Under the pieces are notes generated by a model. That model saw nothing but the letters and a program-made list of their open reading frames with translations, had not been told where the DNA came from and ran no database searches. The translations under genes were made by a program, and so were the position numbers. A stretch of DNA of 64,000 bases from Candidatus Accumulibacter sp. ACC003 (GTDB lineage Bacteria > Pseudomonadota > Gammaproteobacteria > Burkholderiales > Rhodocyclaceae): positions 496,001-560,000 of the forward strand of contig NZ_CAJQTX010000005.1 in the NCBI RefSeq assembly GCF_907163085.1, in the 5' to 3' direction. Positions 17,861 to 22,457 of the stretch are shown here, one piece after another. Positions within the stretch are counted from its first letter, which is position 1. Each line of letters begins with the position of its first letter.

Positions 17861-20800
17861 GTTTCCCCCGCGCCAGCGGGGATAGGCCCGTTGCCGCAGA
17901 AGGCCCGCCAGAGAATGACGAGTTTCCCCCGCGCCAGCGGGGATAGGCCCATGCTCATGCGCTTCATCTCATCGCTCTCGAAGTTTCCCCCGCGCCAGCG
18001 GGGATAGGCCCTCCATCGCGATGGTCAGGATTCGAAGAGACACGTTTCCCCCGCGCCAGCGGGGATAGGCCCCGAGCCGTCTGGCTGCAGTTCTGGCTGA
18101 TTGAGTTTCCCCCGCGCCAGCGGGGATAGGCCCTCGACAGATAGCGGCAGGAACTTCGCCAGTCGGGTTTCCCCCGCGCCAGCGGGGATAGGCCCTTGGA
18201 ACCGATGGCCGCCGCCGCCGCCTTCTGGTTTCCCCCGCGCCAGCGGGGATAGGCCCTCACGCGCCAGCAATGGACCCTGCCCGCATCCGTTTCCCCCGCG
18301 CCAGCGGGGATAGGCCCTTGGCATCGCGTTCGTTGAGGTTGTCGGCGAAGTTTCCCCCGCGCCAGCGGGGATAGGCCCTTGAGTTTGTGATGTCAGGCAG
18401 GACTGCGGGTGTTTCCCCCGCGCCAGCGGGGATAGGCCCGCTTCCCGTCCGCCGCTATAGTCCCATGCGGTGTTTCCCCCGCGCCAGCGGGGATAGGCCC
18501 CCGGTAAGCGCGGCAACAACAGCGCGCCGAGTGTTTCCCCCGCGCCAGCGGGGATAGGCCCGAAGCTCGGCCTTGACCCGCGCCAGGGAAATCGTTTCCC
18601 CCGCGCCAGCGGGGATAGGCCCCAATCGAACATGACTTTCCCTTTCACCAAGGAGTTTCCCCCGCGCCAGCGGGGATAGGCCCGGACTACGGTACATGGG
18701 TGGGACAACAATGGGGTTTCCCCCGCGCCAGCGGGGATAGGCCCACGTTTAGACTTTTCATGACATTACCTCCTGAGTTTCCCCCGCGCCAGCGGGGATA
18801 GGCCCTGCGCTGCGGCTACGACGCAGCGAATTACCTCGTTTCCCCCGCGCCAGCGGGGATAGGCCCTTCTACCGATCCGCGTAGACCTGTTCGCGTAAGT
18901 TTCCCCCGCGCCAGCGGGGATAGGCCCCTGCTGTGTGTAGTGCAGTACCGGACGACCAAGTTTCCCCCGCGCCAGCGGGGATAGGCCCCAGAGACTCCAG
19001 GATGGAAACCAGACCCTGAAGTTTCCCCCGCGCCAGCGGGGATAGGCCTCATGAAGGCGACGCAAAGCAAGGGTGGGTATGGTTTCCCCCGCGCCAGCGG
19101 GGATAGGCCCATCTAGGAACGCAGCGGTGCCAAGGTCCGCTTGTTTCCCCCGCGCCAGCGGGGATAGGCCCGCAATGTCAAGCGCTGCGTGTGCGTCGAG
19201 CAGGTTTCCCCCGCGCCAGCGGGGATAGGCCGTGAACTGAGCGTGATAGAACGCGATGCTGCGGGTTTCCCCCGCGCCAGCGGGGATAGGCCCTGCTTGT
19301 CGCGATGATTATCGAGGATATGGCCGTTTCCCCCGCGCCAGCGGGGATAGGCCCGGTTGCCGAAGTCCGTGACTTCCTCGGCGGTGGTTTCCCCCGCGCC
19401 AGCGGGGATAGGCCCTCCTTGCCCCTTGCAACAAAGAATGGCTATGAGTTTCCCCCGCGCCAGCGGGGATAGGCCCAGGTCTGGAGCAATGGTTTGCGGA
19501 TCAACGAGGTTTCCCCCGCGCCAGCGGGGATAGGCCCAGGTCTGGAGCAATGGTTTGCGGATCAACGAGGTTTCCCCCGCGCCAGCGGGGATAGGCCCGA
19601 CAGGCAGATCGAGCGCATCTCGATTGAGATGTTTCCCCCGCGCCAGCGGGGATAGGCCCGCGGCAGGGCAAAGGTCCGTCGCCGTCTCAGTGTTTCCCCC
19701 GCGCCAGCGGGGATAGGCCCTGCTCGTCATCGCCGACGACGGCGCCGACTGTGTTTCCCCCGCGCCAGCGGGGATAGGCCCCGCCAAAGATCTGATCGAC
19801 GCAGCCAATGACCGTTTCCCCCGCGCCAGCGGGGATAGGCCCTGTTACGCGATGCGTCAGGCATTCCGGATCGAGTTTCCCCCGCGCCAGCGGGGATAGG
19901 CCCGATCTTGACGCCCTGCGCAATCGCTCCCGCACGTTTCCCCCGCGCCAGCGGGGATAGGCCCTACGCGGTAGATGGTGGGCTGGTCGACCGAGCGTTT
20001 CCCCCGCGCCAGCGGGGATAGGCCCTTGGCATCGCGTTCGTTGAGGTTGTCGGCGAAGTTTCCCCCGCGCCAGCGGGGATAGGCCCACAAGAAGCGAGCA
20101 CGCAACAGACGCATACCAGTTTCCCCCGCGCCAGCGGGGATAGGCCCGTAGGCGCCGTACCCTATCGCGCTCACGCCGTGTTTCCCCCGCGCCAGCGGGG
20201 ATAGGCCCGCTCAACTTCCCCGCGCGCCACCCTGGCTCTAGTTTCCCCCGCGCCAGCGGGGATAGGCCCGGGTAGTGCAGCGCGGTGCGAGGGTGCAGGA
20301 CGTTTCCCCCGCGCCAGCGGGGATAGGCCCGGATCGCCGGCAGTAACCGCAATCGCGCACATGTTTCCCCCGCGCCAGCGGGGATAGGCCCGAGCGAAGC
20401 GCCTTCAGCACGCGGTAATAGGTGTTTCCCCCGCGCCAGCGGGGATAGGCCCCAGGGATAACCCGCAGCGCATTCTTGTAGGCCGTTTCCCCCGCGCCAG
20501 CGGGGATAGGCCCGTTATCAAGCAGGTTCGGCACACCCATTGCCCGTTTCCCCCGCGCCAGCGGGGATAGGCCTTTTTTGCACCCACTTCAAAGACCTCG
20601 GATAAGGTTTCCCCCGCGCCAGCGGGGATAGGCCCAGCGACGAGCACATGTTGTGGCTGCTCGCCTCGTTTCCCCCGCGCCAGCGGGGATAGGCCCCGAA
20701 GGAATGGCTGCCTATGCCGTTCCTGAATGTTTCCCCCGCGCCAGCGGGGATAGGCCCGGCTCGGACACGTGGAGCCACCCGGCTATTTTGTTTCCCCCGC

Positions 20801-22189
20801 GCCAGCGGGGATAGGCCGTCGAGCCCGTTGATCCTCGGCCAATGCGCTGGGTTTCCCCCGCGCCAGCGGGGATAGGCCCCTGTCGTTCAGGACAACGGCC
20901 ATTACCGACGCGTTTCCCCCGCGCCAGCGGGGATAGGCCCTTGCCGCTATCACTTGGGGGAAGCATGAAGATGTTTCCCCCGCGCCAGCGGGGATAGGCC
21001 CCTCGTCCGGGGCTCGTTCGGCTACAACTTCTCGTTTCCCCCGCGCCAGCGGGGATAGGCCCAAGCGGTGTTTGTGCGCGAGTACTTGATCGACGTTTCC
21101 CCCGCGCCAGCGGGGATAGGCCGCCACAGTAGGGTCGAACGTGTCGACATCCGGCGTTTCCCCCGCGCCAGCGGGGATCGGCCCAGCTTGGTTGTGCTGC
21201 TCGCCAGCAGTGCGCCGTTTCCCCCGCGCCAGCGGGGATAGGCCCCTGGCCGCTGACCTTGCGGCGATCGGTGTCTAGTTTCCCCCGCGCCAGCGGGGAT
21301 AGGCCTTGACGCTCTCAGGAATTGACCCACTTTTGCTCACGAAACCGGACCCGCCTAGTCGTCATGGCTGTGCGCACGAAAATGCCGCGCACACAGCCAT
21401 TCCCGAGCGTACTCGCCTCTACACGGCGTCAAGGGTACGCTGCGCCGGGCTGCAAAAACCGCAGCCCGCCCTTGACCCCGCTCCGAGGCGAAAACCTGGG
21501 TGTTGGCGCGCGCCAACGGTGGGTCAATTTCCGTGAGCGAAAAAGGGTCAGTTTTCGTGAGCGTTGAGGGGATAGGCCCCTCGACCGCAAGCGCAAGCCC
21601 GCCTGGCCAGTCGAATAGTTTCCCCCGCGCCAGCGGGGATAGGCCCCACTGGCGGCGAACTGATCGACCTGCCACCACGTTTCCCCCGCGCCAGCGGGGA
21701 TAGGCCCTCGCGACCGGCTCGACGGAGACATCCCGAAGCGTTTCCCCCGCGCCAGCGGGGATAGGCCCGTGTCCAGGTCGCGCTGCTTCTCGGGGTCCTT
21801 GTTTCCCCCGCGCCCGCGGGGATAGGCCCTACCGCACCCCCTTTCAAGTGCTCGGTTTAGTGTTTCCCCCGCGCCAGCGGGGATAGGCCCGTTATTCGCG
21901 AAGTACGCCAGCGGGCCATTGTGTTTCCCCCGCGCCAGCGGGGATAGGCCCAGCCTTCAGAACGTCGATTTCATCCTCGCTGAGTTTCCCCCGCGCCAGC
22001 GGGGATAGGCCCCATAGCGGCCACTGCGACAGGGCAGAAGTCGTGTTTCCCCCGCGCCAGCGGGGATAGGCCCGGCTGCCAGACGCGCGGCCAGTTGGTG
22101 GCGTAGTTTCCCCCGCGCCAAGCGGGGATAGGCCCAGGGCGGAAACGCCGAGGCGATCATCCGCGAAGTTTCCCCCGCGCCAGCGGGGA
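17861..22189 (+). CRISPR. Type I-E CRISPR array, 67 repeats and 66 spacers
   Basis: The 29-bp repeat begins GTTTCCCC, contains the hairpin CCCCCGCGCCAGCGGGG and ends GGATAGGCCC. The repeat-spacer period is 61 bp; spacers are 32 nt except one of 33 nt at 18134-18166. There are 57 repeats from 17861 to 21305, then a 262-bp insertion, then 10 more repeats from 21618. The final base of the repeat is variable (T or G instead of C after the repeats at 19021, 19204, 20546, 20790 and 21095). Degenerate repeats lie near the distal end: 21156 (one substitution), 21801 (one substitution), 22106 (one-base insertion) and 22168-22189 (truncated). Two spacers occur twice: 19477-19508 = 19538-19569, and 18318-18349 = 20026-20057. 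The repeat matches the E. coli type I-E repeat in hairpin and orientation, so transcription is on the plus strand. Confidence 0.98.
21306..21567. mobile_element. Non-coding, structured MITE-like insertion in the CRISPR array with IS21-like ends
   Basis: A 262-bp segment splits the array. Its ends are imperfect inverted repeats: left TTGACGCTC..GGAATTGACCCAC..TTGCTCACG, right (reverse complement) TCAACGCTCACG..AACTGACCC..TCGCTCACG, resembling the multiple terminal repeats of IS21-family elements. An 11-bp sequence, GGGGATAGGCC, borders both sides (21295-21305 and 21568-21578), consistent with a target duplication within a repeat. No credible transposase reading frame is present. The interior is built of inverted repeats: ATGGCTGTG..CACAGCCAT (about 21364-21399), nested CGCCTC/GTCAAGG/GGGCTGC arms closing on AAAAACC (21414-21489), and the 14-bp palindrome TTGGCGCGCGCCAA (21503-21516). 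Confidence 0.7.
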
Positions 22190-22457
22190 GCTCGAGGGCT
22201 GGATACTCCAGGCACCCGAGGACGAGCGGAGCGGCACGGAGCTCGAGGACGCGGAGGCCCGGGAAGAACCCGAAGAGCGGCATCAGATCGAGGGGGGCGC
22301 AGCACGAGTCGTTGCGGTCTTCCTCGGTCAGCGGATCGATCAGGCCGATCGAGAGGTGGCGCAAGGAGGGGCGTGGGCCGGCGGCGCGGAGCGCGGCGAT
22401 GAACGGCTCGAGGCACTCCGCGCCGCCCATGTCGAAGCGGCCCGCTTTCCATGACAC
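22190..22457 (-). pseudogene. Truncated leucine-rich-repeat protein gene at the array trailer
   Basis: Reading from 22457, the first 89 residues (MSWKAGRFDMGGAECLEPFI, then FPGLRVLELRAAPLVLGCLE) look like the inside of a leucine-rich-repeat protein of the STM4015-like kind. The frame then runs straight into CRISPR repeats, so the 3' part of the gene is missing. The last CRISPR repeat is itself cut after 22 bases exactly at this junction, so a deletion or recombination fused array and gene. No function is likely. Confidence 0.55.

What the first reader, a model, noticed from the sequence alone, without database searches (positions are those of the whole stretch)
21295..21578. Structured, transposase-free element inserted inside a CRISPR repeat
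A 262-bp segment with IS21-like inverted ends (GACCCAC and GCTCACG blocks) interrupts the array, flanked by an 11-bp duplication GGGGATAGGCC that belongs to the repeat. It is non-coding but packed with inverted repeats, including nested CGCCTC/GTCAAGG/GGGCTGC arms and a perfect 14-bp palindrome. The spacer just after it is longer than normal (38 nt), suggesting extra rearrangement. If transcribed with the array, it would put a large hairpin into pre-crRNA and could block distal crRNAs. Could be a MITE, an RNA-active element, or a terminator-like control.
Basis: partly seen in the sequence, partly recalled or inferred. Interest (0 to 1): 0.75.

Follow-up and report, generated by a model that had tools for sequence, protein, structure and literature searches.

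The report
Mini-transposon with shared folded module
A 266-base transposase-free jumping element of the IS21 kind has landed inside one repeat of a bacterial CRISPR array, and half of it is a two-hairpin folded segment that also turns up inside unrelated kinds of jumping elements in related bacteria, where its job is unknown.

Summary
Window 21304-21569 is a 266-bp MITE (non-autonomous transposon) in repeat 57 of a 67-repeat type I-E CRISPR array. The genome carries 11 full copies (98-100%, this one included), ten with 5-7 bp target duplications; here it is GGATAGG (7 bp). The '11-bp duplication' is inflated because the element's CC/GG tips match repeat bases. The long spacer (39 versus 33 nt) contains a 6-bp tandem duplication that accounts for the excess. 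Ends and interior resemble a 4.47-kb IS21-type transposon (small ORF, ParB-like gene, istA, istB; seven copies), which probably mobilises the MITE in trans.

The unexpected part is the interior: two hairpins (~140 nt) forming a module with strong compensatory change, no Rfam match found, and a patchy distribution mostly in Betaproteobacteria. It lies inside IS21-, ISL3- and IS110-family elements and at least two MITE types with different ends. Wobble pairs favour a single-stranded function on the strand reading inward from the element end. Function is unproven: RNA is my best guess, an ssDNA hairpin the main rival. Terminator, coding and host-exchange readings were tested and not supported; 28 of 115 module copies have no assigned context. 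Insertion into CRISPR is ordinary; the cross-family module is the lead.

The parts
17861..22195 (+). Type I-E CRISPR array, 67 repeats, leader on the left; last repeat (22168) degenerate
   Evidence: 66 repeats found by one scan plus a 29-nt variant at 22106. cas3, cse1, cse2, cas7, cas5, cas6e, cas1e upstream on +. Leader side inferred from the cas gene side and the degenerate far repeat.
21278..21303 (+). Left part of the interrupted repeat (no. 57); stem-loop intact; includes the left TSD copy
21297..21303 (+). Left copy of 7-bp target duplication GGATAGG
21304..21569 (+). MITE, 266 bp, IS21-type ends (CC...GG tips)
   Evidence: 11 full copies in the genome, this one included; 10 of 11 with 5-7 bp TSD, one with 15 bp
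21304..21352 (+). Left end, repeated GACCC/GCTCACG blocks; 84-86% identical over 49 nt to left ends of the seven larger elements
21358..21498 (+). Shared two-hairpin module (covariance model R1 match in this copy, 148.3 bits)
   Evidence: C5:517358-517498
21364..21400 (+). Hairpin H1 (ATGGCTG...CAGCCAT); at least two compensatory pair changes versus the larger elements
21406..21411 (+). Conserved linker AGCGTA
21414..21490 (+). Hairpin H2: variable outer stem, GTCAAGGG/CCCTTGAC core, one-sided bulge, apical GGGCTGC/GCAGCCC stem
21502..21517 (.). 16-bp perfect palindrome GTTGGCGCGCGCCAAC
21518..21569 (+). Right end, repeated blocks; 90-95% identical over 37-42 nt to right ends of the seven larger elements
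21570..21579 (+). Right copy of target duplication GGATAGG (21570-21576), then CCC: right stump of the repeat, without its stem-loop
21579..21617 (+). 39-nt spacer (28-nt repeat convention) with 6-bp tandem duplication GCAAGCGCAAGC

Best explanation
It is a MITE: an internally deleted relative of an IS21-type transposon that inserted, by trans-acting IstA/IstB from a related full-length element, into one CRISPR repeat, giving a 7-bp target duplication (identity and insertion: shown by sequence; mobilisation in trans: inferred). The upstream repeat keeps its stem-loop, and the element's own CC tip restores 28 of its 29 bases. The downstream stump has no stem-loop, so at most the crRNA of the following spacer should be lost (inferred). 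Of its 266 bp about 140 are a conserved two-hairpin module that also sits inside other transposon families. I think the module acts as a single-stranded structured nucleic acid, most likely an RNA read inward from the element end, that serves the transposon (inferred, about 0.45 for RNA). I think it was kept in the MITE because it is useful in cis.
For: 11 full copies, all 98-100% identical, six of them (this one included) the same letter for letter. TSDs of 5-7 bp in 10 of 11, and 6-7 bp in 4 of 7 larger elements. Ends match seven larger elements with istA/istB; IstA and IstB exceed NCBIfam cut-offs (164.2 vs 160; 210.1 vs 200). Module: 93.3% of pair cells paired against 81.9% shuffled, and 93 cells changed on both sides against 26.6 (0 of 500 shuffles). 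No Rfam match to the module in the ten loci scanned. It lies inside ISL3 elements: of six examined, right end found in six, left end in five, 8-bp TSD in two of those five (L219, L249). It co-aligns with IS110 transposase genes as one unit. Two MITE types with different ends (266 bp CC...GG; 235 bp TGT...ACA) consist of little more than ends plus module. On the MITE + strand A.C mismatches outnumber G.T wobbles 47 to 20 among 1833 cells, and the minus strand folds more stably in 50 of 60 sequences.
Against: No expression or transposition data. The interior is only 77-78% identical to the resident larger elements, so they are not its direct parent; the true donor was not found. Tips are CC...GG, not the IS21 terminal CA. 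28 of 115 module copies had no transposase or MITE end that I could assign. A linker-bulge pairing that I tried has wobbles favouring the opposite strand. In one IS21 element (L282) istB runs opposite, relative to the module, to the window's relatives.
Confidence: 0.8

Rival explanations
1. The module is a single-stranded DNA hairpin used during transposition or replication of the element, for example a priming or recognition site on one strand; IS21, ISL3 and IS110 have all been reported to pass through circular forms (recalled).
For: Strand asymmetry also fits ssDNA; Watson-Crick pairs make up 1684 of 1833 cells with only 20 G.T; position beside one end of the element; kept in MITEs.
Against: Unrelated transposase types would have to use one site; no host protein that would bind it was identified; equally compatible with RNA.
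Confidence: 0.25
2. The module is a passive palindromic repeat that hitchhikes in transposons and has no function for them.
For: 28 of 115 copies have no assigned transposon context; it also lies near MobP1-type relaxase genes and a RecD2-like helicase gene.
Against: Compensatory changes in H1 and the outer stem, constant position inside each of the element types aligned, retention in two MITE types.
Confidence: 0.2
3. The insert is a transcription terminator or insulator that shuts off the distal part of the CRISPR array or protects the transposon from outside transcription.
For: Very stable hairpins; in ISL3 elements the module lies between the terminal repeat and the transposase start.
Against: No T-run after H2; terminator-like sites in 21100-21800: 1 found, 0.7 expected.
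Confidence: 0.1
4. Assembly artefact joining a repeated element into the array.
For: The element is a dispersed repeat; three truncated copies in draft relatives break at the H2 start.
Against: 7-bp TSD at this site, different TSDs at the 10 other sites, array continuing on both sides in a 756-kb contig.
Confidence: 0.03

Closest known systems
IS21 family insertion sequences (IS21, IS5376)
   Same: istA/istB-type genes above NCBIfam cut-offs; ends made of multiple short repeats; TSD of 5-7 bp where 5 bp is reported for IS5376 (PMC10122671, passages seen)
   Different: CC...GG tips instead of terminal CA; two extra genes in front of istA (small Cys-rich ORF, ParB-like); hairpin module after istB
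Bacterial MITEs (reviewed in PMC10969869, passages seen)
   Same: Short, no transposase, terminal inverted repeats, TSD, near-identical copies, stable fold of the whole element
   Different: GC-rich; about half of it is a module shared with unrelated transposon families. The review's main text has no occurrence of IS21, ISL3 or CRISPR.
ISPpu9 (IS110-type, recalled) small RNAs Asr9 and Ssr9 (PMC8450116, passages seen)
   Same: An insertion sequence with structured small RNAs beside tnp; one of them (Ssr9) is also found detached
   Different: Different host group; I did not compare the Asr9/Ssr9 sequences; the passages describe one insertion sequence, not several families
IS110 bridge RNA (listing of PMC11208160 seen)
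   Same: Structured noncoding segment in an IS110 element
   Different: The module also occurs in ISL3 and IS21 elements, for which I know of no bridge RNA (recalled)
IS and MITE insertions in CRISPR-Cas loci (PMC10359306, passages seen)
   Same: Mobile element disrupting a CRISPR-Cas locus; MITEs in cas genes are reported there
   Different: Here one array repeat, not a cas gene

Membership tests
MITE | Short, no transposase gene, terminal inverted repeats | tested here: met
   266 bp; inverted arms 81-89% complementary; longest ATG frame noted 67 codons, no Pfam match
MITE | Multiple dispersed copies with target duplications | tested here: met
   11 copies, all 11 with a TSD (ten of 5-7 bp, one of 15 bp)
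MITE | Ends match an autonomous element in the genome | tested here: met
   Seven larger elements, 4.47-7.83 kb; left ends 84-86%, right ends 90-95%
MITE | Moved in trans by that element's transposase | not testable with these tools
   Needs a transposition assay
IS21 family (larger element) | IstA transposase and IstB ATPase, adjacent | tested here: met
   NF033546 and NF038214 above cut-off; the two ORFs overlap in L026
IS21 family (larger element) | Terminal repeats built of several short repeated blocks | tested here: met
   GACCC/GCTCACG-type blocks at both ends
IS21 family (larger element) | Short TSD (4-8 bp recalled; 5 bp for IS5376 in PMC10122671) | tested here: met
   6-7 bp in 4 of 7 copies; none found in the other 3
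IS21 family (larger element) | Terminal CA dinucleotide at the 3' ends | tested here: not met
   Tips read CC...GG in 7 of 7 larger elements and 10 of 11 MITEs, CC...GA in one MITE
Type I-E CRISPR array | cas3-cse1-cse2-cas7-cas5-cas6e-cas1e and 28/29-nt repeats with ~33-nt spacers | tested here: met
   (cas2 not tested)
Known Rfam RNA family (module) | Covariance-model match | tested here: not met
   No match in the module at E up to 1 in 4 + 6 loci
Intrinsic terminator | GC stem followed by T-run above chance | tested here: not met
   1 found, 0.7 expected
REP/REPIN palindromes | RAYT transposase and conserved tetranucleotide beside the hairpin | not tested
   No RAYT search was made

The most novel reading that the evidence does not exclude
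The two-hairpin module is a new class of transposon-borne structured element, probably an RNA read inward from one end. It has spread between unrelated transposon families (IS21, ISL3, IS110) and their MITEs in Betaproteobacteria, and is kept by selection because it helps the element move or persist by a mechanism shared across different transposase chemistries.
Probability: 0.4. Interest if true: 0.82.

Novelty: new variant of a known kind. Interest (0 to 1): 0.62.

Why it matters
As an insertion, this is one more mobile element in a CRISPR array. What would matter is the module: unrelated transposons are not expected to share noncoding parts. If one folded segment serves DDE (IS21, ISL3) and DEDD (IS110) elements alike, it points to a common host-facing step of transposition or of transposon control that I cannot name from the literature I saw. 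It can be tested directly by deleting or re-pairing the hairpins in a marked element.

Tried and rejected
Rejected: intrinsic terminator. Extra rearrangement behind the long spacer (a 6-bp tandem duplication suffices). Module as a known Rfam RNA. Module exchanged between transposon families inside one host: same host/different family identity 0.578 (95 pairs), different host/different family 0.569 (630), different host/same family 0.617 (158), so modules follow the element family rather than the host (115 copies cut to 62 by removing near-identical ones, then 19 without context dropped). Array spacers against the MITE or its larger relatives: no hit there; apart from the array itself hits were 15-21 nt long (only loci held then, not the whole genome). 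Empty site in relatives: none of the 27 other genus genomes showed the two neighbouring spacers; best matches were 42 of 100 bases at 93% and 62 bases at 82% in G012, mostly repeat (list truncated). Phage source of the 39-nt spacer: one phage (two records), 23 nt, E 0.3. Pseudoknot between linker AGCGTA and the H2 bulge: some pair changes fit, but the strand signal is inconsistent, so not claimed. Coding reading: 67-codon frame without Pfam match and not kept across modules.

Limits: A1 uses 31 of the 60 distinct stretches found (near-duplicates and reverse-strand echoes of the palindrome left out by me); its rows came from BLAST matches cut out with a core pattern allowing one substitution per arm. 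In A2 the GTCAAGGG/CCCTTGAC core looks invariant partly because searched for it, so claims rest on helices outside that core. One search used the best 101 of 117 rows of A2, reduced to 69 at 88% identity; 60 were long enough to fold. In one search contexts were assigned by tblastn within 900 bp with IS110, ISL3, IS21 and MobP1 references only, or by end motifs; other IS families would count as 'none'. Hosts were labelled by hand from titles and genome handles; some genomes enter twice (G050 and MAG-173). Searches with over 40 genomes used stricter Infernal filters.

Full report
What is there. Window 21304-21569 is a 266-bp element inside the repeat that starts at 21278, the 57th of 67 repeats of a type I-E array. 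cas3, cse1, cse2, cas7, cas5, cas6e and cas1e precede it on the + strand. The element duplicates GGATAGG (7 bp). A 67-codon frame lies in the element, without Pfam match and not kept across modules.

What it is. The genome (5.39 Mb, 13 contigs) holds 11 full-length copies at 98-100% identity, this one included. All 11 have a target duplication: 5-7 bp in ten, 15 bp in one. The element's ends, and a diverged (77-78%) version of its interior, occur in seven larger elements (in one of them only part of the interior matches). The two shortest are 4471 and 4483 bp and carry a small Cys-rich ORF without family match, a ParB/KorB-like protein, istA and istB. Three of the seven carry a 3.35-kb insert with a serine recombinase inside istA; an eighth place keeps only the left 1.6 kb. 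Four of the seven have 6-7 bp target duplications, three have none that I could find. So the window element is a MITE of an IS21-type transposon. One IS21 hallmark fails: the tips are CC...GG, not a terminal CA (feature from PMC10122671, passages seen). The interior identity says that the resident transposon is a cousin, not the direct parent. Full-length MITE copies at 89-97% identity occur in four of the 27 other genus genomes searched (G004, G008, G013, G015). The same MITE is seen in three records titled Accumulibacter (L209, L217, L225, 94-97% identical to each other), from which I take the host genus.

The interior is a module of its own. DNA searches found the interior without the ends in relatives: 21 of 28 genus genomes and 32 of 297 family genomes, this genome counted in both, had a match to some part of the element. 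Alignment A1 (31 sequences) shows hairpin H1, a linker AGCGTA, and hairpin H2 with a variable outer stem, a GTCAAGGG/CCCTTGAC core, a one-sided bulge and an apical stem. The pairing is supported by changes on both sides: 93 such cells against 26.6 in shuffles, 93.3% of cells paired against 81.9%, 0 of 500 shuffles as high on either, and no slid version above 46.5%; one of the five measures (further pair types) was reached by 24 of 500 shuffles. MITE and resident element differ by compensatory changes in H1. Rfam scans of ten loci gave no match in it.

Distribution. Covariance model R1 finds it in 29 of 199 family genomes (21 of 68 genera), 21 of 399 order genomes (16 of 159 genera) and 2 of 369 class genomes, this genome counted in each. 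One viral contig matched. Two plasmid searches found matches in 23 records each, mostly Paraburkholderia, Caballeronia and Cupriavidus. I then searched 100 sources with R1: 89 of the 105 loci, six plasmid loci and five others; all 100 had a match. Best matches that do not span both hairpins are cut by a locus end, except in L172 and L240.

Contexts. In ISL3 elements the module lies inside the terminal repeats: six examined, right end found in six, left end in five, 8-bp duplication in two of those five (L219, L249). IS110 elements of Burkholderia, Caballeronia, Cupriavidus and Paraburkholderia records align as one unit from before the transposase gene through the module to the right end; an annotated IS110 transposase sits beside it on a Cupriavidus plasmid, an annotated ISL3 one on a Paraburkholderia plasmid. 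Weaker, unverified neighbours are an annotated IS4 transposase on an Aeromonas plasmid and a DDE_Tnp_1 protein in L060. On a Rhizobium plasmid the match overlaps the end of a DUF3991/toprim gene with no transposase annotated in the 5 kb shown. A second MITE type of 235 bp with TGT...ACA-type ends, with exact 5-bp duplications in three of eight copies listed (L204, L205, L264), has the same architecture: end, module, end. Of 115 module copies with a host label, 22 lie with IS110, 16 with ISL3, 13 with IS21, 7 are this MITE, 23 the second MITE, 4 a third MITE-like type, 2 lie by a MobP1-type relaxase gene and 28 were unassigned. In this genome all seven istB loci of the larger element carry it (one copy split). 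Beside the seven distant IstB loci there is one weak match (24 bits, C1:387743), apart from MITE copies lying about 1 and 2 kb from two of them. One of two ISL3 genes has it.

How it may work. The MITE presumably moves in trans with IstA/IstB, which are both needed for IS21 integration (PMC10122671, passages seen). In the array, the left repeat keeps its stem-loop and the element's CC restores it to 28 of 29 bases, whereas the right stump lacks the stem; I infer loss of one crRNA only. For the module, A.C mismatches exceed G.T wobbles 47 to 20 on the + strand in 69 de-duplicated sequences, and the minus strand is the more stable RNA in 50 of 60 (Wilcoxon p 6e-9, not corrected for relatedness). 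This points to a single strand that reads inward from the nearby element end. In the five full-length element types whose near end I saw (the IS21-type element, ISL3, three IS110 groups whose ends I took from where copies stop matching) H2 faces that end, although the transposase gene runs the other way in ISL3. That ties the module to the end of the element rather than to the transposase mRNA. Against a simple rule, istB runs opposite to the module in L282. RNA is my first choice, an ssDNA hairpin the second.

What is not known. I have no expression or transposition data. I looked for a description of such a module (search listings only) and in passages of four papers and saw none; that is not proof of absence. 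The nearest precedent that I saw is ISPpu9, an insertion sequence whose transposase is controlled by two small RNAs beside tnp (PMC8450116, passages seen).

Noticed in passing
L026:4697-9167 and L024:4203-8685: The IS21-type element carries a ParB/KorB-like gene and a small Cys-rich ORF in front of istA; such extra genes in an IS21 element are unusual as far as I recall.
   Followed up: partly
L021:6166-9195: A 3.35-kb insert with a serine recombinase and an HTH protein sits at the same place in istA in three of seven copies; one of the three has its own target duplication (C6), so an interrupted copy may have moved with helper proteins.
   Followed up: partly
L271, L207, L191, L257: The module lies about 110-180 bp after a MobP1-type relaxase gene (family tested by HMM for L271 only), preceded in L271 by a ParB/KorB-like gene.
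   Followed up: partly
L201, L196, L203: The module sits 54-65 bp after the end of a RecD2-like helicase gene in L201 and L196 (L201 scores 349.7 bits, below the cut-off of 500); L203 aligns with L201 over that gene.
   Followed up: no
L065, L066, L067: Truncated MITE copies in draft relatives all stop at the start of hairpin H2 (position 107-112; L067 at a contig end), by deletion or by assembly failure at the hairpin.
   Followed up: no
L187, L259, L212, L216: Janthinobacterium IS110 copies appear to sit in a repeated GTCGGGTTA palindrome, resembling IS110 insertion in REP sequences.
   Followed up: no
window 18317-18349 and 20025-20057; 19476-19569: Two spacers occur twice in the array, one pair 28 units apart and one pair adjacent.
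   Followed up: no
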